NCBI GenBank assembly: GCA_947565635.1
Contig: CANOGU010000001.1
Span: forward strand, 62,001 to 126,000
From: an uncultured Lactobacillus sp.
Lineage (GTDB): Bacteria > Bacillota > Bacilli > Lactobacillales > Lactobacillaceae
DNA: 64,000 nucleotides
Direction: 5' to 3'
In this document: one piece after another, positions 11,954-59,808 of the stretch
Layout of the letters: every line of letters starts with the position of its first letter
How positions within the stretch are numbered: position 1 is the first letter of the stretch
Position numbers and translations under genes: made by a program
The notes under the pieces: model-generated
Database searches by the model: none
What the model was told of the DNA's origin: nothing
Seen by the model: the letters and a program-made list of their open reading frames with translations, nothing else

Positions 11954-13645
11954 ATGGCTTTTGATGGTTTATTTATTCATAGTCTTCTACAAGATCTCTC
12001 CCCTACTCTGGTTGGAGGAAAACTTACTAAAATATACCAACCATTTGAACAAGATTTAGTTTTAAATTTCAGGAAAGATCGTAAGAATCAGCGTTTACTG
12101 ATTTCTGCTAATGCTCAAAATCCACGCTTTTATATTACAAATGATACAATTGCAAATCCTGACGTTGCTCCTACTTTTGTTATGGTTTTGCGGAAATATT
12201 TAGAAGGATCAGTTCTTCAAAAAATCGAACAAATCGGTGTTGAGAGAATAGTTAACTTTCATTTTTCTAATCGAAATGAATTAGGAGATGAAATGCAGCT
12301 TATTTTATCAGTAGAATTGATGGGACGACATAGTAATGTGATTTTATATAATGCGGATAATAATAAAATTATTGATTTGCTTAAAAGAATCAATCCTGAT
12401 GAAAACCGCGCTCGCTTATTACTTCCACATGCCCCTTATGAACTCCCTCCTCTTCTTCCAGGAATCAACGGTTTTGACCTTTCTGCTGATGGCTTCACTG
12501 AATTAAAGGAAAAGTATTCTGAACCAGCAGATTTTGTAAAACAATTTAATGGTTTAGATGGAGATGATAAAAAAGAACTTACTGGTTACTTAGAAGACGA
12601 TTTTTCATATAGTTCTTTACAGACATTTTTTAATCAATTTAATAGACCAAAAGGATATGTATTACAAACCATTAAGCATAAGGATCGTGTATATACTTAT
12701 CTACCATATCATCTAGAATTAAATTTGATTTATTCTAATGACGATGTCAATAAAACATTAGACGAGTTTTATCGTGATCAGGCCAATCGTGAATGGGTAA
12801 AGCAAAAGTCTAAAAGAATTGAAAATATTGTTAATAATGAGCTTAAAAAACTTAAAAAGAAGATTATTAAGTTACGTAAGCAATTAGATCAAGCCGAGAA
12901 TTCTGAAGAATATCGAATTAAGGGTGAATTACTTAATGCTTATCTTCATGAAGTAAAGGCTGGGATGACAAGTATTGATCTACCAAATTATTATAAAAAT
13001 AATAAGCCCTTAAAAATAAAACTTGATCCCGCACTTTCACCTGCTAGAAATGCACAAAAATACTTTACTCGTTATCAAAAATTACGTAATTCAATTAAAC
13101 ATGTTAATGAACAAATTAAATTAGCAAACGAGAACTTAGATTACTTTGATTCTATCCAAACTGCAATTGATAATGCGGATCCACAAGATATTGATGCAAT
13201 TAGCGATGAATTGATTAATCAAGGCTATCTAAAAGAACAAAATCATAATCATCGCCGGAAGAAAAAGATTAGCGAAAAAAATTTGAATACTTTCAAACTA
13301 AGTGATGGTAAAAAAGTATTAGTTGGTAAAAATAATTATCAAAATGATTGGCTAACTTTAAAAAAGGCAGACAAACGTGATTACTGGTTCCATGTCAAAA
13401 ATATGCCTGGCTCTCATGTCATTTTGCAGGACAATGATCCAAGTGATGAAGATATCAAAGAAGCAGCCGAAATTGCTGCCTATTTCTCTAAAGGAAAGAA
13501 TTCTAGTCACGTCCCAGTTGATTATGTGCAAGTTAAAAGAATTAAAAAACCTAATGGTGCTAAGCCTGGTTTTGTCATTTATACTGGTCAGAATTCAATC
13601 GAAGTCACTCCCAATGAAAAAGATATTTTAGAAAAAAGAATATAG
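11954..13645 (+). CDS. rqcH: Ribosome quality control factor RqcH (NFACT family)
   Basis: A 563-residue NFACT protein, formerly called fibronectin-binding protein. RqcH binds obstructed 50S subunits and adds C-terminal alanine tails to stalled nascent chains. The NFACT-N domain covers about residues 1-210 (MAFDGLFIHSLLQDLSP start, LMGRHSNVIL), followed by a coiled-coil region (about residues 270-420) and the NFACT-R domain (about 450-560; DYWFHVKNMPGSHVIL). The AAAGGAGG ribosome site is very good. It is transcribed against its neighbours and ends at a bidirectional terminator shared with carB. Confidence 0.93.
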   Translation: MAFDGLFIHSLLQDLSPTLVGGKLTKIYQPFEQDLVLNFRKDRKNQRLLISANAQNPRFYITNDTIANPDVAPTFVMVLRKYLEGSVLQKIEQIGVERIVNFHFSNRNELGDEMQLILSVELMGRHSNVILYNADNNKIIDLLKRINPDENRARLLLPHAPYELPPLLPGINGFDLSADGFTELKEKYSEPADFVKQFNGLDGDDKKELTGYLEDDFSYSSLQTFFNQFNRPKGYVLQTIKHKDRVYTYLPYHLELNLIYSNDDVNKTLDEFYRDQANREWVKQKSKRIENIVNNELKKLKKKIIKLRKQLDQAENSEEYRIKGELLNAYLHEVKAGMTSIDLPNYYKNNKPLKIKLDPALSPARNAQKYFTRYQKLRNSIKHVNEQIKLANENLDYFDSIQTAIDNADPQDIDAISDELINQGYLKEQNHNHRRKKKISEKNLNTFKLSDGKKVLVGKNNYQNDWLTLKKADKRDYWFHVKNMPGSHVILQDNDPSDEDIKEAAEIAAYFSKGKNSSHVPVDYVQVKRIKKPNGAKPGFVIYTGQNSIEVTPNEKDILEKRI

Positions 13646-13684
13646 AAAAAAGCGTTCATATCAAAATGAGCGCTTTTTCTATAT
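13641..13684. terminator. Bidirectional terminator between rqcH and carB
   Basis: Stem ATAGAAAAA-GCG-TCAT / ATGA-CGC-TTTTTCTAT with a loop of about six bases. It is A-rich before and T-rich after, so it can work in both directions. Confidence 0.8.
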
Positions 13685-13717: not shown

Positions 13718-16700
13718 TTACAAAGGCTGAGTAGTCATTGCTAAAGTTTCAAGTACTATTAAAACATCTTGCGCTGATTGTAAACTAGAAAAAACAGGAA
13801 TATGTGTGCTTAAAGCTGCATCTTTAATCATAATTGCATCATGACTAGCAGAGTCGGATAAACTGGTTACGTTGATTACTAGATTAATTCGGTGCTGCTT
13901 TATCTTTTCAAGTAAGCTATTGCTTCCCTCTTGAACCTTTTCAATAATTCCTGTTGTTATTCCCTCTTCAGCTAATACATTTGCAGTACCTTCAGTTGCT
14001 AAAAGCTTAAAACCTAACTGATGAAAACGTGCAGCTATTTTAATTGCATTATGTTTTTCAGAATCTTTAACCGAAATAAAGACAGTACCATATGTTGAAA
14101 TCATTAAATCACTGCCTTCATATCCTTTAAACAAGGCAGTCGGCAAATGCTTGGCTCGTCCCATCACACTACCAGAGGTCTTCATCTTAGAATCAAAGGT
14201 ATTTTCACTACTATATGATAAATAAGAAAAGACGGGCATTTTAACGTGAATTAAGTCGTTTGATGGCCAAATATCGCTTGGAAGATCTAATTCAGACAAT
14301 GTACTTCCTAACAAAACTTTCATTGTTATAGCTGTAATATCTTTTTTTAGTGCTTTAGTTAGAAAAGCTACATTGTGTCCAGAGTAACTTTTAATTTGTA
14401 ATAAATAGATTTGATCATTAGCTAGTAAAAAGTGTAAGTTAACTGGTCCTCTTAAATTAAGTTTAGTGGCAATACTAATTGCACTATCACGTAATCTACG
14501 CTGATCATTAGTTGATAAATTTTGTGGACGATAGACAGCTATGGAGTCACTGGCATGTGAGCCGGTCTGTTCAAAGTGTTCAATAATTCCGGGAATAGTA
14601 ACATTTTTACCATCAGAAATAGCAGTCACTTCATACTTTTTACCTTCAATAAACTTCGAAACATTCATATGCTCTAATGAATTTTCAGCAATATATCTTT
14701 GTAAAGCTGGTAAATCAAAGACCACAGCAGATTTTTGCTTCTTACCGTTACTTGTACCACCAATTAAAGCTGGAAAACCATTTCTTTTAACAAAAGCTAA
14801 AATGCTTTCTTCATTATCGCATTGAAGAGCTGGGACTGGATTAACGCCGGCCTGATATACTTCGTCTGCATGATCTTCCCTTAGAATTTCCTTCAAATTA
14901 GGCTGACCTAAAATTGTTAGACCATGTTCTAAGAGTGAACTGCGATATTCATTAATCTGTTTGCCAGAAAATTGCGTTACCACTTCTTTGATATTTTCTT
15001 TCCATGCAACTTCAAGAATATTTTCTAAAGTAATTGGTTCAAAGTAAATTCGATCGCATACATCATACGCTGCACTCACACTTTCTGGATTATTACTAAT
15101 AATCACAGGGCTAATTCCTTGCTCTTTTAAGGTCTTGGCAGCATGGTAGAGCATATAATCAAACTCACCAGTTAGAGATACTTGAAATGGCTTTAATCCT
15201 AAAAGAAGGCATTTTTTCGAATTAGATAGCGGTATTATTTCATCTTCAATTCCATAACTACTGTAAACAGCTTGAATATTAGGATGGATTAACCCAGCTG
15301 TTCCATCAATTTCAATATAGCTAGGCTTAATTGACCATTTTTTACATAAATCAGCAATTGATTTTTCATCTTGCTGCGTAATTTCAGCAATTAATCGATT
15401 AGAAAAACCATTTTTCTTTACTTTCAGCATTAAATCAGCTGTAAGTTCATCATTACGTAATTTCTTTAATAAAATCAAAATATGATTAAACTTCTGCAAA
15501 AATACTAAATGAATATGTAAAAGCTGGTGAAGAGTGTGGTAATTAATTCCCTTTGCTATCGCGGCTAATAGTGTAATTAGGTGTATTTCATTAGGCTTCG
15601 ATAGATCTTGCAATAATTCTTTTTCGCTTTTTTTATATTCCTTTTTAAAGGTCTTAACATTATTAGAAAAACCAGTAGTTGACTGGAGAGCCTTTAAAAA
15701 TGCACTTTCAAAGTTACGACCAATTCCTAGAGCTTGGCCTCCGGAAGTGGTTTTATTATTAAGAGTGTAGTGATTATAACCAGCTTCTGTGAAAGACCAA
15801 TAAGGTAATTTTACAAAGCAAGCATCTTGCACGGGATCAACAGCAGCAGAAATTCCAGATTGTGGATCGGTAATTTCATTTAAATTATAGCCAAGTGCAA
15901 TTTTGGCCGTTACATATCCAATAGAATATACGCCACTTCTATAAGAAAGCAAACTACTCTGAGTCAAACGGGGCTTAATACTTAATACTTTAAAATTAAA
16001 GTCTTCCCCACTTTGCTTAACAGCAAAATGAATACTCAAAGCTCCATGTAAATTAAGACAATTAGCAATCTTTCGACAGCAATTTCTTAAGCGTTGAATT
16101 TGATTATTATTTCTAGTTAAAATTGGCGTCACTAATAAAGAATCTGAAGAATTAATACCAACTGGTTCTAAACTACCAATATTTCCTACAAATACAAAAT
16201 TTCCATTATTATCCCGAACAATATCAAAAATTAATTCTTCCCAATTCGATAAATCTTCAGTTAAACGATAATCTTTCCAATTAAAATGGTCATCAGCTTC
16301 TTCGTCTAAGAAGTATTGCTCTAATTGAGTTAGATTTTCTAAAGAGATCATGCTATCGGGGCGATAATGCTGCTTTTTTGATAAAAGCAAAGGAAAATGA
16401 GCATGTTCAATTACTCGCCTTAAGTCCTCTTCTTTTTCTAACAGCCATTGATTGGCCACCGCAATCTTATTTGCTTTAAGAAAACTATAGAAATTATGAG
16501 GAGCTGATAGACTCAATGCCAAGCTGTTAATAGTTAGTAACTCAATATTCATTTGGGTTAAGATGCCCGACTCTAATAATTCACTGGTAAGTTTTAAAGC
16601 CGGTTTGCCCCCAAAAGCCGGAATAATAGCATCTGGCTTCTCCATCCGAATGATTCGCTTCACAAAAGGCAACGTCATTGGTTCAAGATATACATTTACA

Positions 16701-16882
16701 TTAGGATGCGGATCTGTTGTGACGGTTGCAGGATTGGGATTAATCAATACAACTTGTACGTTACTTTCTTCAAAAGCCGTTAACGCTTGTTTAGCAAGAA
16801 TATCAAGTTCTGTTACTTCTCCAACAATACTTGGCCCCGCTCCAATAACAAGAACTTTATTAATTTCATTATGTAAAGGCAT
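13718..16882 (-). CDS. carB: Degenerate carbamoyl-phosphate synthase large subunit
   Basis: A 1054-residue protein with the full CarB layout: two ATP-grasp halves (about residues 1-400 and 550-920), an oligomerisation linker and a C-terminal MGS-like allosteric domain (about 925-1050). Key residues are missing. In the first half the Glu and Asn metal ligands (E299/N301 in E. coli) are Ser301 and Lys303, the ATP Arg169 is Ser168, the glycine loop is gone and Gln285 is His285. In the second half Glu841, Asn843, Arg845 and Arg715 are Gln829, Lys831, Tyr833 and Gly708. The frame is unbroken. By family knowledge neither site should bind Mg-ATP normally. It lies three bases after carA. Confidence 0.85.
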   Translation of the reverse strand: MPLHNEINKVLVIGAGPSIVGEVTELDILAKQALTAFEESNVQVVLINPNPATVTTDPHPNVNVYLEPMTLPFVKRIIRMEKPDAIIPAFGGKPALKLTSELLESGILTQMNIELLTINSLALSLSAPHNFYSFLKANKIAVANQWLLEKEEDLRRVIEHAHFPLLLSKKQHYRPDSMISLENLTQLEQYFLDEEADDHFNWKDYRLTEDLSNWEELIFDIVRDNNGNFVFVGNIGSLEPVGINSSDSLLVTPILTRNNNQIQRLRNCCRKIANCLNLHGALSIHFAVKQSGEDFNFKVLSIKPRLTQSSLLSYRSGVYSIGYVTAKIALGYNLNEITDPQSGISAAVDPVQDACFVKLPYWSFTEAGYNHYTLNNKTTSGGQALGIGRNFESAFLKALQSTTGFSNNVKTFKKEYKKSEKELLQDLSKPNEIHLITLLAAIAKGINYHTLHQLLHIHLVFLQKFNHILILLKKLRNDELTADLMLKVKKNGFSNRLIAEITQQDEKSIADLCKKWSIKPSYIEIDGTAGLIHPNIQAVYSSYGIEDEIIPLSNSKKCLLLGLKPFQVSLTGEFDYMLYHAAKTLKEQGISPVIISNNPESVSAAYDVCDRIYFEPITLENILEVAWKENIKEVVTQFSGKQINEYRSSLLEHGLTILGQPNLKEILREDHADEVYQAGVNPVPALQCDNEESILAFVKRNGFPALIGGTSNGKKQKSAVVFDLPALQRYIAENSLEHMNVSKFIEGKKYEVTAISDGKNVTIPGIIEHFEQTGSHASDSIAVYRPQNLSTNDQRRLRDSAISIATKLNLRGPVNLHFLLANDQIYLLQIKSYSGHNVAFLTKALKKDITAITMKVLLGSTLSELDLPSDIWPSNDLIHVKMPVFSYLSYSSENTFDSKMKTSGSVMGRAKHLPTALFKGYEGSDLMISTYGTVFISVKDSEKHNAIKIAARFHQLGFKLLATEGTANVLAEEGITTGIIEKVQEGSNSLLEKIKQHRINLVINVTSLSDSASHDAIMIKDAALSTHIPVFSSLQSAQDVLIVLETLAMTTQPL

Positions 16883-16885
16883 AGT

Positions 16886-17941
16886 CTACTCCATCATATT
16901 TAAAAACTGATCATAAATGCTGGCTGCATCAAAATTACCTGGTGAACCTTCTGGATTAAAGGCAGTTGCTAAAACTTTATCTTCTTTGATACTATAGCCC
17001 GCTAATAACTCCGACCTTAAATCAAAATATTTACGTGAAAGATTCAAAGATAAACTATCAGGTACTACCAGTTGATCAATATTCATTGCAGTTTGCCAAA
17101 TTCGATTATTAGTTTGTTCAATAACTGGAAAATTACTGCCATTATAGGCTGGAATTAAGTCCAAGAGTTCCAGATTTAAATAATTACTAATTGCTAAAAA
17201 GCCTAAGCCAATTCCTAGAATAGGCAATTTTCCGTAAAACTTATCAAATACTGGTTTTAAAAATGGTGCAACTTCTTCTACTCTACTTGGCCCATTAGAA
17301 ATAACAATTGCATCAGCTCGAAGATTAATAATATCGTAAATCGATGCATTGTATGGTAAAACCACACTATTAATTTTCCGTAAAGAAAGGGAGCGCAGTA
17401 ATGAATGCTTTAAACCAAGATCAATTACAGCTACAGTTTTTCCAATATTTGGGGCAGCATAAGGATGCGTTGTAGATATTTGTGCTGTTTTGTTTTTTGG
17501 TAAAACCAGGGCCTTTATTTGATCAAAAGCATGGGCATCATCTGTATCCATAATAGACGCTTTAATAACCCGCTTATTCTTCAATTTTTGAACTAAAGCG
17601 CGAGTATCAACACCGTAGATTGCTGGAATTCTTTTCTCTTTTAGAAAATCATTTAAATCTTGAAAAGTTGGATTAGCAGAAATATGAAAAGCAATATCGT
17701 TAGCAATTATTCCACGTACACTTGGATCAATTGATTCATAGTCGATTGCATTAATACCACTTCCACCAATCATTGGAGTAGTAAAAGCCAAAATCTTACC
17801 AAAATTGGCAGGGTCGGAAATTGCTTCCTGATATCCAAAATTGCTTGTTTGAATACCGAGCTCCCCTGTAGCAGTAATGGGAGCACCAAAACCGTGTCCC
17901 GAAAATGCAGTTCCGTCTTCAAGAATTAAATATCTTTTCAT
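16886..17941 (-). CDS. carA: Degenerate carbamoyl-phosphate synthase small subunit
   Basis: A 351-residue protein colinear with CarA: N-terminal CPSase small-chain domain (residues 1-150; TGYQE-like segment FGYQEAISDP) and a class I glutamine amidotransferase domain (about 165-345). The nucleophile elbow usually reads GICLGHQ; here it is GIGLGFL, so the catalytic Cys is Gly245. The catalytic His of HPE is Asn329 (NPE). Other active-site residues have also changed (SNHPV to SNFPV). It should be unable to hydrolyse glutamine. It begins three bases after rluD and ends three bases before carB, so it is almost certainly cotranscribed with both. Confidence 0.87.
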   Translation of the reverse strand: MKRYLILEDGTAFSGHGFGAPITATGELGIQTSNFGYQEAISDPANFGKILAFTTPMIGGSGINAIDYESIDPSVRGIIANDIAFHISANPTFQDLNDFLKEKRIPAIYGVDTRALVQKLKNKRVIKASIMDTDDAHAFDQIKALVLPKNKTAQISTTHPYAAPNIGKTVAVIDLGLKHSLLRSLSLRKINSVVLPYNASIYDIINLRADAIVISNGPSRVEEVAPFLKPVFDKFYGKLPILGIGLGFLAISNYLNLELLDLIPAYNGSNFPVIEQTNNRIWQTAMNIDQLVVPDSLSLNLSRKYFDLRSELLAGYSIKEDKVLATAFNPEGSPGNFDAASIYDQFLNMME

Positions 17942-17944
17942 AAT

Positions 17945-18859
17945 CTATTGCTTCATTTCTTGTCGTAAATTCTTTAATTGTTTTTCAAAAATTGTTGGCA
18001 ATGGTGCAGAAAATTCCAACCATTCATTCGTAGAAGGTTGATAAAATCCCAAAGTCTTGGCATGCAAAAATTGTCCATGACCTGACAAGGTTCTCTTTGG
18101 GCCATATAAGGGATCGCCAGCTAATGGATGACCGATGTACTTCATATGCACTCTAATTTGATGCGTTCTACCCGTTTCCAGTACACATTTGACTAAACTA
18201 TAATTTTTAAATTGCTCTAGTACTGTAAAGTGTGTAACTGCAGCTTTCCCCTTTGGATTAACCGCCATTTGCTTTCGATTATTTGGATTTCTACCAATCG
18301 GAGCATTGATTACGCCATTTTTTACTTCAAAGTTGCCATGAACAATTGCCAAATATTCTCTTTTATTTATCTTTTCTGCTAATTGCTTTTCTAAGCTTTC
18401 ACGTGCTTTATCATTTTTAGCTATCATTAATAAACCAGAGGTATCTTTATCAATTCGATGCACAATCCCTGGACGAAACCTTTCAGGACTATCAGCTAAA
18501 TCACGTGTATGATAAAGTAATCCGTTGACTAAAGTATGATCTGGATGACCGGCTGAGGGATGAACAACCATCCCTTGAGGCTTATTAACCACAATCACAT
18601 CCGAGTCTTCATAAACAATATCAAGATGTAAGTTTTCAGCTTCTAATGATAATGGTTTAACAGGCGGAATAGTAACATCAATTACATCCCCAGACTGTAC
18701 TTTATAAGATACTTTTTCAGCTTTATTATTAACTAAAATATTTTTATCATTAACTAATTCCTTAATCTTAGTTCGACTTAAATCTGTAATTTTCTCAGCG
18801 ATTACCTTATCTAAACGTCCTTTTTCGTCATCAATTACTAATTTATAATTTTTAGTCAT
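17945..18859 (-). CDS. rluD: 23S rRNA pseudouridine synthase, RluD type
   Basis: A 304-residue RluA-family enzyme. An S4-like RNA-binding domain is at residues 12-70, then the catalytic domain with the HRIDKDTSGLLM motif carrying the catalytic Asp (about residue 139). The C-terminal GRTHQIRVHMKYIGHPLAGDP segment is standard. It modifies uridines in helix 69 of 23S rRNA, in the RluD pattern; the exact target set is inferred. It sits between lspA (14 bases) and carA (three bases). The lspA-rluD pair is conserved widely in Firmicutes. Confidence 0.92.
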   Translation of the reverse strand: MTKNYKLVIDDEKGRLDKVIAEKITDLSRTKIKELVNDKNILVNNKAEKVSYKVQSGDVIDVTIPPVKPLSLEAENLHLDIVYEDSDVIVVNKPQGMVVHPSAGHPDHTLVNGLLYHTRDLADSPERFRPGIVHRIDKDTSGLLMIAKNDKARESLEKQLAEKINKREYLAIVHGNFEVKNGVINAPIGRNPNNRKQMAVNPKGKAAVTHFTVLEQFKNYSLVKCVLETGRTHQIRVHMKYIGHPLAGDPLYGPKRTLSGHGQFLHAKTLGFYQPSTNEWLEFSAPLPTIFEKQLKNLRQEMKQ

Positions 18860-18873
18860 TTACTCTTCGTCCT

Positions 18874-19338
18874 TTAGTCTTTTTCGCTTATAAATATTAG
18901 ATAGATAAAAACTAAGATAATTCCAACTGTAATTGCGCTGTCAGCAATATTAAAGATATTAAATTGAATAAAATCTAGTTGCAACATATCAATTACATAT
19001 TTTAGATGCAAACGATCAATAAAGTTACCAATGATTCCACCTAAAACTAAGGCTAATCCTGTATCAAAAAGGCCATTTTTATACTTTGGATTAAAAAGAT
19101 AGTAAATTACAACTGCAATAGCGGCAATACTGATTAAATAAAATAAAATCATTTGTCCACTGAAGATATTCCAGGCTGCTCCATCGTTTTGTAAATATGT
19201 AAATGAAAGGACACCAGGAATAATGGTTTTTTCATCACCAATTTTAAAATTAGTAACTATATAATTCTTTAATAATTGATCTGCAATAATTACTAATAAA
19301 GAAATTATTAGATATAAGGCTTGTTTAGCTTTACTCAT
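18874..19338 (-). CDS. lspA: Lipoprotein signal peptidase (signal peptidase II)
   Basis: A 154-residue membrane aspartyl protease with four predicted membrane segments that removes the signal peptide from prolipoproteins. The catalytic aspartates are in NFIDR (about residue 111) and IFNIADSAI (about 133). The NDGAAWN segment also matches the family. It overlaps the fhs stop by one base and is followed by rluD. Confidence 0.95.
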   Translation of the reverse strand: MSKAKQALYLIISLLVIIADQLLKNYIVTNFKIGDEKTIIPGVLSFTYLQNDGAAWNIFSGQMILFYLISIAAIAVVIYYLFNPKYKNGLFDTGLALVLGGIIGNFIDRLHLKYVIDMLQLDFIQFNIFNIADSAITVGIILVFIYLIFISEKD

Positions 19339-21017
19339 TAGAATAATCCTGAAATCTTTCCGTTATTATCTACATCAATATCTAAGGCAGCTGGATGTTT
19401 TGGCAATCCTGGCATATCTAAAATAGATCCCGTAGCTACCACAATAAAACCTGCTCCATTTTTAAGAGCTAAATTCTTAACATGGAGTGTAAAATCTTCT
19501 GGAGCTCCTAAGATACTCTTTTTATCAGTAAAGCTATACTGTGTTTTAGCCATAATTACTGGTAAGTTGTCTTTACCCATTTTCTTAATTTCTGCTAATT
19601 GATCCTTAGCTTTATCAGAATATTCAATATCCTTGGCATGATAAATATTATGGGCGATTTTACTAATTTTTTCTTCTACAGAGTCAGTAGGTTCATATAC
19701 TGAGGTAAAGTCACTAGCTTTATTAGTTAACTCAACCACTTTTTCTGCCGCCTTAATTCCGCCCTTTGATCCTTCATCATGGTAAGAGACCACTTCACAT
19801 TCAAAACCATCAGCTTTAACAAGTTCTTTCAATTTTGATAGTTCTTGTTCAGTATCACTAGCAAATTTATTTATTAGTACAATTACAGGTACACCATAAT
19901 GAGCCATGTTTTCCATATGGCGCTTTAAGTTCTCAAAACCTTTTTCTAAAGCTGGAATATTTTCTTCATCTAAGTGATCAGTTGTCTCTTCTGCTTGATA
20001 CTTCAACGCTCTTACAGTTGCAACAACTACCACAGCATCAGGACGTTTGTCCAAATGGTTAGAAACAAAGTCCATAAACTTTTGGCCACCCAGATCTGCC
20101 CCAAAACCAGCTTCAGTCAAAACATAGTCGCTTAAGTGTAAAGCAGTATTAGTAGCAATTACTGAATTAGCACCATGAGCAATGTTAGCAAATGGACCGC
20201 CGTGAACAATTGCTGGGGTATGTTCAAGTGTTTGAACTAAGTTAGGCTTTAATGCGGTTGATAAAAGCGCAGCAATTGCCCCCTCAAACCCTAAGTCTTT
20301 AACATAAACAGGTTCATCTTTCACAGAAAAGCCAACTAGCATATTTCCAATGCGCTTTTTCAAGTCATCAATATCAGTTGCTAAACATAAAATAGCCATT
20401 AATTCATTAGCTACAGTAATTGCAAAGCTAGCTTCATGTTCTATTCCATTAAAACGTGAACCTTGTCCGATAGTGATTTTTCTTAAAGTACGATCATTAA
20501 CGTCAATTCCACGTTTTAATAAGATACGATTAGGATCTAGCTCTAGACTATTATCTTGATAAATATAGTTATCAACTAAAGCAGCCAAAGTATCAATTGC
20601 ACTAGTTAATGCGTGCATATCACCAGTAAAGTGTAAATTAATATCTTCCATTGGGATGATCTGTGCATATCCACCACCAGTTGCACCACCTTTTAATCCA
20701 AAAACAGGACCCATTGAGGGTTCTCTTAATGCAATTAAAGTATTTTTGTGAAGTTGGTTGCTGATTGCATCCCCTAAACCAATGGTAATAGTAGATTTTC
20801 CTTCACCAGCCGGTGTAGGACTAATTGAAGTAACAAGAATTAGCTTACCAAGCTTTTTACCTTGTTTAATTCTGTTAATTCCCTTCCAGCTAATCTTAGC
20901 CTTATCATTACCATAAAGTTCAATTTCATCTGGTTGAAGATCAACTTTTTTTGCAATTTCTGTAATAGGTAATTCTTTAGTGTCTTGTGCGATTTTAATA
21001 TCTGACTTCAAATTCAT
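19338..21017 (-). CDS. fhs: Formate-tetrahydrofolate ligase
   Basis: A 559-residue enzyme that joins formate to THF using ATP and yields 10-formyl-THF. The ATP loop TPAGEGKST is near residue 67, and [18 protein letters not shown] follows it. Length and motifs are standard for this family. It overlaps the upstream 114-residue membrane gene by four bases (ATGA) and lspA by one base, so the set is translationally coupled. folD at 56010 supplies the linked dehydrogenase and cyclohydrolase step. Confidence 0.96.
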
Positions 21018-26107: not shown

Positions 26108-26484
26108 ACAAATCTCTATAAGCCACGTTCTGTTCCAATAGGATTTGGTTAATTCCTATTTTCAGCGACCATCTATCTTCATTAAAAATGACCTCGTCTT
26201 TAGTTCATTTACTTAGACGAAAGCGCCCCTACCAAATTTGGGTTGCCCGCTTGCAGGGTTTACCTCGTTCCACCAGCAAAGTTTCCTTCACTGCTTCGTC
26301 ACTGTGGCACTTTTCAGGATAGTCACACATGTCAAAAATGATTTAGTGCTTTTTCCGCCGTAACTTGTAAAAACAAGTTCCCCAGCTTATTGGGCTGAGT
26401 ACAAAAACTACAAGCATCTCAGCTTGTGCGTGCGTGGACTTTCCTCAGCTAGCATAAGCTAACCGCGATCGCTCGAAATTTGCA
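26108..26484 (-). ncRNA. rnpB: RNase P RNA, bacterial class B
   Basis: About 377 nt, the catalytic RNA that trims tRNA 5' leaders. Read on the - strand, the conserved GAGGAAAGTCCACG is near the 5' end and ACAGAACGTGGCTTATA near the 3' end. The outermost P1 helix pairs CAAATTTC (5' side, 26475-26482) with GAGATTTG (3' side, 26109-26116), which fixes the ends. It is located between gpsB and ypsC, as in B. subtilis. The promoter lies eight bases upstream and the terminator just downstream. Confidence 0.95.
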
Positions 26485-57018: not shown

Positions 57019-57468
57019 TTACTCTACCTTTTCAAAAACTTCACATACCATTGGTGCCTGAAGATAAAATACTTTACCTGCTTCTCGATATTCCCAATCA
57101 AAAAAATCATCATGGGCTCGACGCCAATATTCATAACTTCGATCACCCTCACCTTCATGATAGGCGTACTCTTTAGAAATCAAATTATAAGGAACAATTT
57201 CCACTACCTTATCTTGAATGACACAAACAGGTTCTTCTTTACTATTCAAAACAATACTCCACTCCCCTGCAGTAGGTAATTTTTCATTTTTATCATAAAG
57301 TTCGTAAGCAGAAGTAGTAGCCGTTTTTATGCCCTGACTTACTAATTGAGCCAATTCGTCTGCCTGCTGCGGCGTTGCACCAAAAGCCCATACTTCTACC
57401 GGAGTATCATATTCTAAGTTATGCCTTTGACAAAAATCTTGCCAAAATTGTTTCAATTGTTTATTCAT
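57019..57468 (-). CDS. ASCH domain protein
   Basis: A 149-residue ASCH (PUA-like fold) protein: AFGATPQQADELAQLVSQGIKTATTSAYELYD and LPTAGEWSIVLNSKEEPVCVIQ are typical. ASCH proteins bind RNA or modified nucleosides; one E. coli member, YqfB, hydrolyses N4-acetylcytidine. It overlaps the adjacent phosphorylase gene by eight bases, so a role in handling modified nucleosides is an inference from context. Confidence 0.85.
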   Translation of the reverse strand: MNKQLKQFWQDFCQRHNLEYDTPVEVWAFGATPQQADELAQLVSQGIKTATTSAYELYDKNEKLPTAGEWSIVLNSKEEPVCVIQDKVVEIVPYNLISKEYAYHEGEGDRSYEYWRRAHDDFFDWEYREAGKVFYLQAPMVCEVFEKVE

Positions 57469-58243
57469 TTTTACCTAATTTCGTTAAAACTTTAGATCCA
57501 ATCTCTAACCCCGCACTGTGAGATTCATACCCCCAGTCGCGTTCATCATAGTTTTCTATATCAGCCAATGTATCAGCAGTAAATAAAATTTGAGCAAAAT
57601 CCACTTTTCTAAATTGCGCACACGCTGCCAAAGATGCACATTCCATTTCAACAGTTGCAGCTCCTAATTGACGAAAATGTGCAACTTTCTTGGGCGTTTC
57701 TCTGAAGAAGCCATCAGTTGTCCAAGTTGTAATTTCATCATATTTAAGATTTAAAGTAGCTAATACATCTTCTACCTGTTTTAAGAAATTCTGATTCAAA
57801 TCGATAAATTGACCTGGCTCCATATAATGAAAAGATGTTCCTTCATCGCGAATTGCCCGTTTGACTAGTAACATCTCATTTTCTGGTAAATCAGTTAACG
57901 CCCCCGCATTACCAACAGTTAAAACTTGTTTCACGCCATAACTAATCAACCAATCAAGTAATTGGACCGAAGCCGGTCCTCCAAGCGGTGCTTGACATAA
58001 AGTAAAATATTCACCGTTTAATTCAACTTCATAAATCTTAGGACTAAAAGATACTGACTCAAATTCACCTATAGTGCGGTGAAGATGTTGATCTAAAAAA
58101 GCATCAATTTCATTTTTAGGAACAAATGCGTAAAGCAAGCGTGAGTGAAAACGAAATGGTGCCTGATCATAATCTGGTTCAATTACTGCATGATGATTTG
58201 AGTCAAAGTTTAAAATAAATGGTTGTTCTGTTTTTTCTGTCAT
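57461..58243 (-). CDS. Nucleoside phosphorylase (NP-I family), copy 1
   Basis: A 260-residue phosphorylase: VLTVGNAGAL (phosphate and sugar site), RAIRDEGTSFHYM, and AATVEMECASLAA, the NP-I Met-Glu motif that binds ribose. It should cleave a nucleoside with phosphate to base plus ribose-1-phosphate. Base preference is not readable. It is the third of three adjacent, highly similar genes in one leftward operon; the 12-base gaps each hold a ribosome site. Confidence 0.87.
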   Translation of the reverse strand: MTEKTEQPFILNFDSNHHAVIEPDYDQAPFRFHSRLLYAFVPKNEIDAFLDQHLHRTIGEFESVSFSPKIYEVELNGEYFTLCQAPLGGPASVQLLDWLISYGVKQVLTVGNAGALTDLPENEMLLVKRAIRDEGTSFHYMEPGQFIDLNQNFLKQVEDVLATLNLKYDEITTWTTDGFFRETPKKVAHFRQLGAATVEMECASLAACAQFRKVDFAQILFTADTLADIENYDERDWGYESHSAGLEIGSKVLTKLGKNE

Positions 58244-58255
58244 AATTATTTCTCC

Positions 58256-59035
58256 CTATTTTGGACTTAATTTACTTAGAACTTTAGATCCAATTTCTAA
58301 TCCAATTCCATATGACTTACGTCCCCAACCACGGCGGTCGTAGTTTTCCATTTTTGCTAATGAATCTCCAGTAAACAAAATTTGAGCAAAATCTACTTTT
58401 CTAAATTGCGCACATGCTGCTAAAGCCGCACACTCCATTTCGACAGTATCGGCTCCTAATTGACGAAATTGAGCAACTTTCTTTGGCGTTTCTCTGAAGA
58501 AACCATCTGTCGTCCAGGTGATGATTTGATTGTATTTATAGCCTAATTCTGAAATTACTCTTTCAACTTGAGACAAGTATGCAGGTTCTAGTTCTACAAA
58601 CTGACTAGGTTTTAAGTAATAAAATGAAGTTCCCTCTCCTCGAATTGCTTTTGTAGGTACAAGCATTGTATTTTCGGGCAGATCATTTAATGCACCAGCA
58701 TTTCCAACCGCTAAAATTTGTTTAACTCCATAGTTAATTAACCAATCGAGTAACTTTGTGGCCGCAGGCGCTCCTAATGGAGCTTGGCATAAAGTGAAAT
58801 ATTTGTTTTCAATTTTGACCTCATAAATTTTAGGTCTAAACGAAATAGTGCGGAAACTTCCTAGCGTGCGATGAGGATATTGATCTAAAAAAGAATCAAT
58901 TTCTTCTTTAGGAACAAAGGCGTAAAGTAATTTGGGATTAAAGTGGAACGGTAAGTCTTCAAAATCTGGTTCAAGCACGGCATGATGATTCCCATCAAAA
59001 TCTAAAATAAATGGTTGTCCGGTCTCTTCTTTCAT
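58256..59035 (-). CDS. Nucleoside phosphorylase (NP-I family), copy 2
   Basis: A 259-residue paralogue of the flanking genes, closely alike in most segments (ILAVGNAGAL, KAIRGEGTSFYYL, ADTVEMECAALAA). Differences cluster at the substrate-pocket segments, for instance RDEGTSFH to RGEGTSFY and FTADTLA to FTGDSLA, so substrate specificity may differ between copies. Confidence 0.87.
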   Translation of the reverse strand: MKEETGQPFILDFDGNHHAVLEPDFEDLPFHFNPKLLYAFVPKEEIDSFLDQYPHRTLGSFRTISFRPKIYEVKIENKYFTLCQAPLGAPAATKLLDWLINYGVKQILAVGNAGALNDLPENTMLVPTKAIRGEGTSFYYLKPSQFVELEPAYLSQVERVISELGYKYNQIITWTTDGFFRETPKKVAQFRQLGADTVEMECAALAACAQFRKVDFAQILFTGDSLAKMENYDRRGWGRKSYGIGLEIGSKVLSKLSPK

Positions 59036-59046
59036 ACCTACTCCTC

Positions 59047-59808
59047 CTACAATTTTTGTAATATCTCAAAGCAAATTTCTAATCCACGCCGATGTGAATC
59101 GGTTCCACCATCACGTGGATCATAGTCCTCTTCATTAGCTAAAGTATCAGCTGTAAACAAAATTTGAGCAAATTCAATTTTTCTAAATTGCGCACAAGCT
59201 GCTAGTGCTGAACACTCCATCTCTACTACGGATGCCCCTAAATCACGAAATTGATTTACTTTTTTCGATGTTTCTCTAAAAAAAGCATCTGTAGTCCATG
59301 TCGTCACTTCATCGTATTTGTAATCTAGCTCAGTTATTACATTTTTTACCTGACTTAAAAATTCAGTGTTCAAATCGACCATTAGACTATCTTCTAAATA
59401 ATGGAAAGAAGTTCCTTCATCTCTAATTGCCTTAGTGGGAATAAACATTTCATTTTCTGGTAAATCTACAAGTGCACCAGCATTTCCAAATGCTAAAACT
59501 TTCTTGACACCATATGCAATTAACCAATCAAGTAATTGTGTGGCGGCCGGAGCTCCTAAAGGAGCCTGACATAAAGTAAAGTATTCTCCGTTACTTTCAA
59601 TTTCATAAATATCTGGCTGAAAGGAAATGGTATCATACGACCCTAACACTTTATGGGGAACTTGTTCTAAAAAATTAGCAATATCTTCTTTAGGAACAAA
59701 GGCAAATAATAATTTAGAATGAAATTTAAAGGGTTGTTTTTCATAATCGGGTTCAATAACAGCGTTGGGATCTTTATCTATTTGTAAAATACATCGCTCT
59801 TCTTTCAT
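59047..59808 (-). CDS. Nucleoside phosphorylase (NP-I family), copy 3
   Basis: A 253-residue paralogue, the first of the three in transcription order, eight bases after the Nudix gene. It keeps VLAFGNAGAL, KAIRDEGTSFHYL and ASVVEMECSALAA. It is the most divergent copy at the N- and C-terminus (RDGGTDSHRRGLEICFEIL). All three have unbroken frames. Confidence 0.87.
   Translation of the reverse strand: MKEERCILQIDKDPNAVIEPDYEKQPFKFHSKLLFAFVPKEDIANFLEQVPHKVLGSYDTISFQPDIYEIESNGEYFTLCQAPLGAPAATQLLDWLIAYGVKKVLAFGNAGALVDLPENEMFIPTKAIRDEGTSFHYLEDSLMVDLNTEFLSQVKNVITELDYKYDEVTTWTTDAFFRETSKKVNQFRDLGASVVEMECSALAACAQFRKIEFAQILFTADTLANEEDYDPRDGGTDSHRRGLEICFEILQKL

What the first reader, a model, noticed from the sequence alone, without database searches (positions are those of the whole stretch)
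13718..16882. CarB with both ATP-grasp sites disarmed but the reading frame and allosteric domain kept
Seen: E299/N301 equivalents are Ser301/Lys303, and E841/N843/R845 equivalents are Gln829/Lys831/Tyr833. The Arg169 and Arg715 equivalents and the glycine loops have gone too. The MGS-like domain that senses UMP/IMP/ornithine in known CarB is retained. An ATP-less CarB with a matching dead CarA might be a sensor or a partner protein with a new role.
Basis: partly seen in the sequence, partly recalled or inferred. Interest (0 to 1): 0.75.

Follow-up and report, generated by a model that had tools for sequence, protein, structure and literature searches.

The report
Conserved dead twin of carbamoyl-phosphate synthase
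Lactobacillus bacteria carry, often beside a normal one, a two-part copy of carbamoyl-phosphate synthase that has lost its catalytic residues yet is kept intact by selection, so it most likely senses or regulates rather than makes anything.

Summary
CarB* (13718-16882, -) and CarA* (16886-17941, -) are an intact CPS pair with both ATP-grasp sites and the glutaminase dead; the predicted CarB* fold is still that of CPS. The genome also has a normal carB. CarB* occurs in 74 of 75 held genomes of the genus, under purifying selection even where normal carB and pyrB are gone. Site-2 replacements are fixed (E841Q, N843K, R848H in 73/73 rows), site 1 drifts, and the MGS residues recalled to bind UMP/IMP are almost all invariant. 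The locus is the ancestral pyr-operon slot after rluD. Elsewhere in Lactobacillaceae, 46 of 54 slots read hold a carA with Cys269 to Gly and a degraded carB, and 41 of the 46 also a pyrR; 40 slot PyrRs form one clade (support 94) apart from operon PyrRs. So the window holds one branch of an old, family-wide pseudo-CPS module, not a decaying gene. Best reading: a non-catalytic, ligand-responsive regulatory complex; what it binds and acts on is not shown. Boldest reading: elsewhere in the family it supplies the inorganic-carbon signal credited to PyrR2.

The parts
13718..16882 (-). CarB*: full-length CPS large-subunit pseudoenzyme, 1054 aa; both ATP-grasp sites dead, MGS domain kept
16886..17941 (-). 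CarA*: CPS small-subunit pseudoenzyme, 351 aa; C269G, H272F, Q273L, H353N (E. coli numbering)
17945..18859 (-). rluD, upstream neighbour in the same run of genes; marks the ancestral pyr-operon slot
18874..19338 (-). lspA, conserved neighbour (name recalled, no family search)
19338..21017 (-). fhs (formate-tetrahydrofolate ligase; name recalled, no family search), next gene upstream
11954..13645 (+). fbpA/rqcH (NFACT family), convergent gene that closes the slot here
13647..13678 (.). terminator-like stem-loop between fbpA and carB*, with A and T runs on either side; could serve both strands
   Evidence: scan only, listed on the + strand; 8 terminator-like sites found in the region against 4.1 expected

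Best explanation
CarA*/CarB* is a conserved pseudoenzyme complex derived from the carAB of the ancestral rluD-linked pyr operon. By sequence it cannot make carbamoyl phosphate from glutamine, bicarbonate and Mg-ATP, because the glutaminase nucleophile and the metal ligands of both ATP sites are gone (residues shown; their roles recalled). It is kept by purifying selection over the genus, also where normal carAB, pyrB and in one complete genome pyrR are gone (shown). Inferred mechanism: a non-catalytic regulatory complex with the CPS fold. The MGS domain still binds a nucleotide-like or phosphate ligand. The remodelled, more basic second ATP-grasp pocket holds a metal-free anionic ligand or locks a conformation. 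The state is passed on through the well-kept CarA* N-domain to a partner not yet known. My estimates: non-catalytic and functional about 0.93; a ligand-responsive regulator of this kind about 0.5.
Against: No ligand, partner or phenotype is known, and the output is pure inference. Most dead-slot CarBs elsewhere in the family (40 of 46) have lost the MGS domain, so MGS sensing cannot be the job common to the whole family. One genome (G020) has a broken CarB* frame. MGS conservation could reflect assembly rather than ligand binding, and the margin over the normal enzyme is small (.766 against .735). Switched positions may have been fixed once by drift in the ancestor and then merely kept for folding. 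A kept fold shows no function, and the pocket itself was not inspected in the model.
Confidence: 0.5

Rival explanations
1. Neofunctionalised enzyme: the remodelled second ATP-grasp domain catalyses a different reaction, perhaps without the usual Mg-ATP chemistry.
For: Site 2 has a new fixed set (G715, K761, Q841, K843, H848 in 73/73; H829 and Y845 in 71/73) while site 1 drifts; 25 canonical-invariant positions there are switched to another fixed residue.
Against: Metal ligands and the phosphate-binding Arg are gone at both sites (roles recalled); no further enzyme gene is tied to the pair beyond rluD and lspA in the 20 regions compared.
Confidence: 0.17
2. Regulatory subunit of the normal CPS: CarA*/CarB* assembles with normal CarA/CarB and tunes it.
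For: CarB* keeps the CPS fold; an analogous inactive partner, the pseudo-dihydroorotase of Pseudomonas, is known (recalled).
Against: 15 genomes at least 90% complete lack an intact normal carB, yet CarB* is intact in 14 of them. Pairs of genomes without any normal carB match still show dN/dS 0.02-0.12 (three of the genomes in these pairs are 67-85% complete). The oligomerisation domain is the least conserved part (.461 identity).
Confidence: 0.08
3. Inorganic-carbon or pyrimidine sensor working through PyrR2: in the family the dead CPS partners the neighbouring second PyrR; the genus Lactobacillus copy is a derived form.
For: 41 of 46 dead slots hold a pyrR, in 35 as the next named gene before carA; 40 of the 43 slot PyrRs in the tree form one clade apart from operon PyrRs, support 94. 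L. [quoted passage not shown] CPS uses bicarbonate. G080 and G117 look canonical at all 12 checked site-1 positions while site 2 is dead.
Against: In the window's genus the slot PyrR is gone and complete genome G290 has no PyrR match at E <= 0.001, yet CarB* is intact. In the 46 dead slots E299 is kept in 8 and N301 in 8. I could not verify that L. plantarum pyrR2 lies in this slot.
Confidence: 0.2
4. Dead relic: a pseudogene that happens to be open.
For: Catalytic sites gone; one broken frame in G020.
Against: Complete CarB* frames in 73 of 77 genomes, down to 43% pairwise identity; dN/dS well below 1; clade-specific fixed residues.
Confidence: 0.02
5. Residual or ammonia-dependent CPS that uses unusual metal ligands.
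For: Dead glutaminases are known in working CPS such as human CPS1 (recalled).
Against: Unlike CPS1 (recalled), both ATP sites are lost too; 14 of the 15 genomes with CarAB* but no intact normal carB also lack pyrB over the cut-off.
Confidence: 0.03

Closest known systems
Glutamine-dependent carbamoyl-phosphate synthase CarAB (E. coli; PDB 1c30, 1bxr, 1a9x)
   Same: Both subunits, domain order and length; phmmer 421.8 bits over residues 1-1029; predicted fold TM 0.89/0.88 to 1c30_A; MGS ligand residues kept.
   Different: No glutaminase Cys or His, no metal ligands at either ATP site; shifted pattern of conservation.
Human CPS1
   Same: Glutaminase is catalytically dead and the C-terminal domain is the effector site (recalled); fold match.
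   Different: CPS1 keeps both ATP-grasp sites and makes carbamoyl phosphate (recalled); CarB* keeps neither.
Pseudo-dihydroorotase PyrC' of Pseudomonas ATCase (recalled, no call)
   Same: Inactive homologue of a pyrimidine enzyme, kept for a structural or regulatory role.
   Different: It is bound to an active enzyme of the same pathway; CarAB* persists where normal carB and pyrB are gone.
PyrR2 of Lactiplantibacillus plantarum
   Same: A second PyrR beside dead carAB is the rule in the family slot; PyrR2 is reported to act on pyr genes in response to inorganic carbon (PMC3582564 passages).
   Different: The window's slot has no PyrR; location of lp_1782 in the slot not verified.

Membership tests
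Carbamoyl-phosphate synthase (CarAB), as an enzyme | Homology and full domain architecture of both subunits | tested here: met
   Pfam CPSase_L_D1, D2, D3, MGS and CPSase_sm_chain, GATase; phmmer to CPS structures
Carbamoyl-phosphate synthase (CarAB), as an enzyme | CPS large-subunit fold | tested here: met
Carbamoyl-phosphate synthase (CarAB), as an enzyme | Cys-His-Glu glutaminase triad in CarA | tested here: not met
   C269G and H353N in 71/71 distinct rows; only E355 kept
Carbamoyl-phosphate synthase (CarAB), as an enzyme | Metal and phosphate ligands of ATP site 1 (R129, R169, E299, N301) | tested here: not met
   R129 0/73, R169 0/73, E299 0/73, N301 1/73
Carbamoyl-phosphate synthase (CarAB), as an enzyme | Metal and phosphate ligands of ATP site 2 (R715, E841, N843) | tested here: not met
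   0/73 each; replaced by fixed G, Q, K
Carbamoyl-phosphate synthase (CarAB), as an enzyme | NCBIfam TIGR01369 equivalog score | tested here: not met
   654.1 bits against cut-off 1027; but NF003671 passes, 678.5 against 599, so automatic annotation would call it CPS
Carbamoyl-phosphate synthase (CarAB), as an enzyme | Carbamoyl-phosphate synthesis | not testable with these tools
   needs protein
Pseudoenzyme (conserved non-catalytic homologue) | Catalytic residues missing in orthologues | tested here: met
   73 CarB and 71 CarA distinct rows; four genomes (G001, G020, G031, G123) left out as incomplete
Pseudoenzyme (conserved non-catalytic homologue) | Kept by purifying selection | tested here: met
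Pseudoenzyme (conserved non-catalytic homologue) | A demonstrated non-catalytic role | not testable with these tools
   no binding or genetic data
Family-wide dead carAB slot module with PyrR2 | Dead carAB downstream of rluD | tested here: met
   20/20 regions of the pseudo clade, closed by fbpA; 46 of 54 other slots dead, fbpA seen in 31 of the 46 stretches
Family-wide dead carAB slot module with PyrR2 | PyrR gene in the slot | tested here: not met
   absent in the window though present in 41 of 46 other dead slots
Family-wide dead carAB slot module with PyrR2 | Single origin | tested here: inconclusive
   CarA tree needs 2 or 3 changes, one clade not rejected, p-AU 0.133; PyrR clade support 94

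The most novel reading that the evidence does not exclude
The Lactobacillaceae carry an ancient pseudo-CPS that has been turned into the missing inorganic-carbon and nucleotide sensor of pyrimidine control. The dead CarAB, descended from the bicarbonate-using enzyme, reports bicarbonate, ATP or UMP status to PyrR2, which explains the CO2-dependent pyrimidine phenotype of lactobacilli. The genus Lactobacillus then uncoupled it from PyrR and kept the nucleotide-sensing MGS end for another target.
Probability: 0.18. Interest if true: 0.92.

Novelty: new variant of a known kind. Interest (0 to 1): 0.75.

Why it matters
The genes that automatic models would name carA and carB at this locus are not working carbamoyl-phosphate synthase in any of the 73 genomes examined in full, so metabolic models that count them for pyrimidine or arginine synthesis would be wrong; 20 of 75 genus genomes, seven of them under 90% complete, show no other full carB match. 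A large two-subunit pseudoenzyme kept over a genus, and in related forms over a family beside a second PyrR, makes the unexplained CO2 control of pyrimidine synthesis in lactobacilli testable by a clean deletion.

Tried and rejected
Rejected: recent decay or assembly error (77 genomes; dN/dS). Rejected: only copy in the genome. Rejected as sole explanation: partner of normal CPS and dependence on PyrR. A Fusobacteriaceae hit (L173) and a divergent CarB of G040 (L296) keep their ATP-site residues, so they are ordinary CPS. In 23 genomes of other families of the order, CarB* as query gave at most one match each at E <= 0.001, so I saw no second, dead copy there; I read only that of G040. No PyrR-binding RNA or other Rfam element reached the gathering score near the locus; the only hit in 5-30 kb is RNase P.

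Papers: I saw no description of a dead or second slot carAB in lactobacilli in what I looked at: searches (no paper; 20 of 52 listed; 2 of 2; 15 of 3,788; 15 of 231; 5 of 924; 2 of 2; 1 of 1; 1 of 1), 84 (2 of 2, both on cotton); beyond the listings I read passages of four papers. The library holds only open-licence papers, and the two most relevant ones are not held. My recall that the L. plantarum operon is written pyrR1BCAa1Ab1DFE suggests that second copies were noticed there; I could not check.

The long-branch warnings of the concatenated tree mean that the exact sister of CarAB* is unsure. In one search one canonical pair (G261/G260) had dN/dS 0.30-0.39; G260's normal carB is only 56% identical to that of G000, so I left G260 out of the matched comparison (20 of 21 kept). 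In VIA-align the list is of Foldseek's own candidates, so no fold is excluded by it.
Full report
OBSERVATION. The window encodes on the minus strand a 114-aa protein, fhs, lspA, rluD, carA* and carB*, packed head to tail, then a terminator-like stem at 13647-13678 and the convergent fbpA. CarB* (1054 aa) and CarA* (351 aa) align with E. coli CarB and CarA over nearly their whole length. Against E. coli numbering the window has CarA C269G, H272F, Q273L, H353N; CarB site 1 R129P, R169S, G175R, G176P, H243N, Q285H, E299S, N301K; site 2 R715G, G721K, E761K, Q829H, E841Q, N843K, R845Y, R848H. The roles of these residues in E. coli CPS are recalled, not from a call.

WHERE IT COMES FROM. The nearest named records are an uncultured Lactobacillus MAG (100% in CarB*) and Lactobacillus johnsonii ATCC 33200 (99%). 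The held genome G000 has 1.64 Mb in 32 contigs, 79.6% complete. It also has an intact normal carB (1627 bits), whose residues at the sites compared are canonical (L001 is one of the 21 canonical rows), near pyrB and flanked by two pyrR genes.

DISTRIBUTION. A CarB* match was found in 74 of 75 genomes of the genus, own included; the exception, G275, is 59% complete. The 60 that are at least 90% complete with at most 5% contamination all have it. Among 201 family genomes, eight of them of the genus, it is also in G086 and G123 (one genus, unnamed) and in G099, whose contig length equals that of the Holzapfeliella floricola record L159. Of the 77 genomes read, CarB* is cut by contig ends in G001, G031 and G123, and broken in frame in G020; CarA* is cut or missing in G123, G269 and G031. 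CarA* and CarB* lie on one strand with spacing from -17 to +16 bases in all 76 genomes where both were found.

THE SITES. In 73 CarB and 71 CarA distinct rows (G001, G020, G031, G123 left out) the losses are universal: C269G 71/71, H353N 71/71; E841Q, N843K, R848H, R715G, E761K 73/73; R845 is Y in 71 and F in 2; E299 is kept in none and N301 in one. The two halves behave differently. Of positions invariant in 21 canonical CarBs, the first ATP-grasp domain has 23 kept, 12 switched, 88 variable; the second 22 kept, 25 switched, 43 variable; switched against variable gives Fisher p 0.0002. The site-2 set is more basic: +4 formal charges over 22 of the 29 switched positions that one search lists there; G908D, among the seven left out, would make it +3. 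MGS positions S948, K954, T974, G976, T977, K993 and N1015 are 73/73, T1017 63/73.

MATCHED CONTROL. In 20 genomes that carry both paralogues (21 fetched; G260 dropped, its normal carB being only 56% identical to that of G000), mean pairwise identity pseudo/normal is: preATP 1 .753/.923, ATP-grasp 1 .585/.892, oligomerisation .461/.723, preATP 2 .625/.880, ATP-grasp 2 .654/.831, MGS .766/.735; CarA N-domain .812/.755, GATase .681/.813. So the MGS and CarA N-domains are slightly better kept than in the working enzyme, while the other domains are relaxed. By count of invariant positions the MGS domain is not ahead (45 against 49 of 137), the CarA N-domain is (72 against 66 of 150).

SELECTION. 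Nei-Gojobori dN/dS over 19 pairs is 0.010-0.104 for CarA* (18 defined) and 0.024-0.115 for CarB* (17 defined); many dS values exceed 1.5, so these are rough. For the five pairs in which neither genome has a normal carB match, CarA* gives 0.023-0.104, and CarB* 0.024-0.115 in the four defined; G004, G272 and G277 in these pairs are 67-85% complete, so absence is less sure there.

NATURAL EXPERIMENT. Normal carB is over the TIGR01369 cut-off in 51 of 75 genomes; G033 has it split over contigs, G009 has an internally deleted copy, G013 a fragment, G275 none, and 20 have no full match beyond CarB* (the list is cut at weak matches). PyrB is over its cut-off in 52 of 75. Fifteen genomes at least 90% complete lack an intact normal carB; 14 of them have an intact CarB* (all but G020), and 14 lack PyrB over the cut-off (all but G009). 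On a CarB* FastTree the presence of normal carB needs 7 changes, gains or losses. G290, one contig, has no normal carB, no PyrB over the cut-off and no PyrR match, yet an intact CarB*. The function therefore does not need the normal enzyme or PyrR.

ORIGIN. The order lspA-rluD-carA*-carB*-fbpA is the same in 20 of 20 regions read, G086 and G099 included. In other Lactobacillaceae I read 56 rluD regions (of the 61 genomes; four are in the pseudo clade, and G087 was skipped because its contig ends). G088 has no carAB there and G092 is cut by the contig end. Of the 54 others, 8 hold a pyr operon with pyrR, pyrB, pyrC, carA, carB and later pyr genes and Cys269, and 46 hold a carA with Gly269 (46/46), no His353 (46/46), and neither pyrB nor pyrC. 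Of these 46, 40 have a shortened CarB (605-901 aa) with at most 18% of the MGS domain aligned, and 6 a full-length one. E299 is kept in 8 of 46, N301 in 8, E841 in 1, N843 in 1. In G080 and G117 the 12 checked site-1 positions are as in canonical CarBs while site 2 is dead. A pyrR is in 41 of the 46, and fbpA was seen in 31 of the 46 stretches. dN/dS between congeneric dead slots is 0.009-0.115 for CarA (9 of 16 pairs defined) and 0.017-0.229 for CarB (12 of 16). Names of pyr genes rest on matches to L228, whose order I read by recall of the known operon.

TREES. The CarAB* rows are one clade in the concatenated tree, support 100, with long-branch warnings. In the CarA trees the dead set needs 2 or 3 changes, and one origin is not rejected (p-AU 0.133; one search left out five dead rows with long branches and four near-copies). 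In the PyrR tree 43 rows were labelled dead slot: 39 of the 41 (G068 and G107 are not among the rows), G092 whose slot is cut, and three g55 genomes whose carAB I did not read; 40 of the 43 form one clade, support 94, apart from the operon PyrRs; G069, G081 and G092 lie outside. The PyrRs of G000 and G015 group with each other, those of G012 and G276 on a long branch apart. This fits an old module pyrR2-carA'-carB' from which the genus Lactobacillus lost the PyrR.

LINK TO KNOWN GENETICS. PMC3582564 (passages) says that PyrR1 and PyrR2 control the pyr operon of L. [quoted passage not shown] PMC7911632 (passages) gives pyrR2 as lp_1782 and pyrR1 as lp_2704. PMC9159523 (passage) gives the fibronectin-binding protein as lp_1793. 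So pyrR2 lies about eleven locus tags from fbpA, as this slot would have it, but I could not verify it. In four genomes of g55 a slot PyrR (83-99% identical to that of G097) coexists with a second PyrR that is 65% identical to it.

ANNOTATION. NCBIfam NF003671 accepts CarB* as CPS (678.5 against 599) and NF009475 accepts CarA* (414.4 against 221), while TIGR01369 and TIGR01368 reject them. Automatic annotation would therefore call a dead protein CPS.

JUDGEMENT. Shown: both subunits are dead by sequence, keep the CPS fold by prediction (CarB*), are kept by selection, sit at an ancestral locus and do not need normal CPS. Inferred: a regulatory role with a nucleotide or phosphate ligand at the MGS domain. 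Unknown: ligand, partner, output.

Noticed in passing
L226, L234-L256, L259-L281 (dead slots): Across Lactobacillaceae the slot after rluD holds carA with Gly269 and usually a shortened carB beside a second pyrR: 46 of 54 slots read.
   Followed up: partly
L253 (G080), L280 (G117): Full-length dead-slot CarB that looks canonical at the 12 checked site-1 positions but is dead at site 2: possibly a bicarbonate-dependent half-enzyme.
   Followed up: no
L001; G000:C1:177798-185542: The window's genome has two pyrR genes flanking its normal pyrB and carB, each about 65% identical to the slot PyrR of G097.
   Followed up: partly
L297 (G009): Normal carB with a large internal deletion in one open frame (535 aa) beside a CarA with its catalytic residues; may be an assembly fault.
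   Followed up: partly
L116 (G020): The only CarB* with a broken frame (about residue 949 of 1054) among 77 genomes; the genome also shows no normal carB and no PyrB.
   Followed up: no
window 57461-59808: Three similar genes of about 255 aa in tandem on the minus strand, resembling nucleoside phosphorylases (by eye; no search).
   Followed up: no
L133: A record titled Faecalicatena absiana carries this Lactobacillus locus; probably misnamed or contaminated.
   Followed up: no
window 26114-26480: Class B RNase P RNA on the minus strand, 301.7 bits.
   Followed up: no
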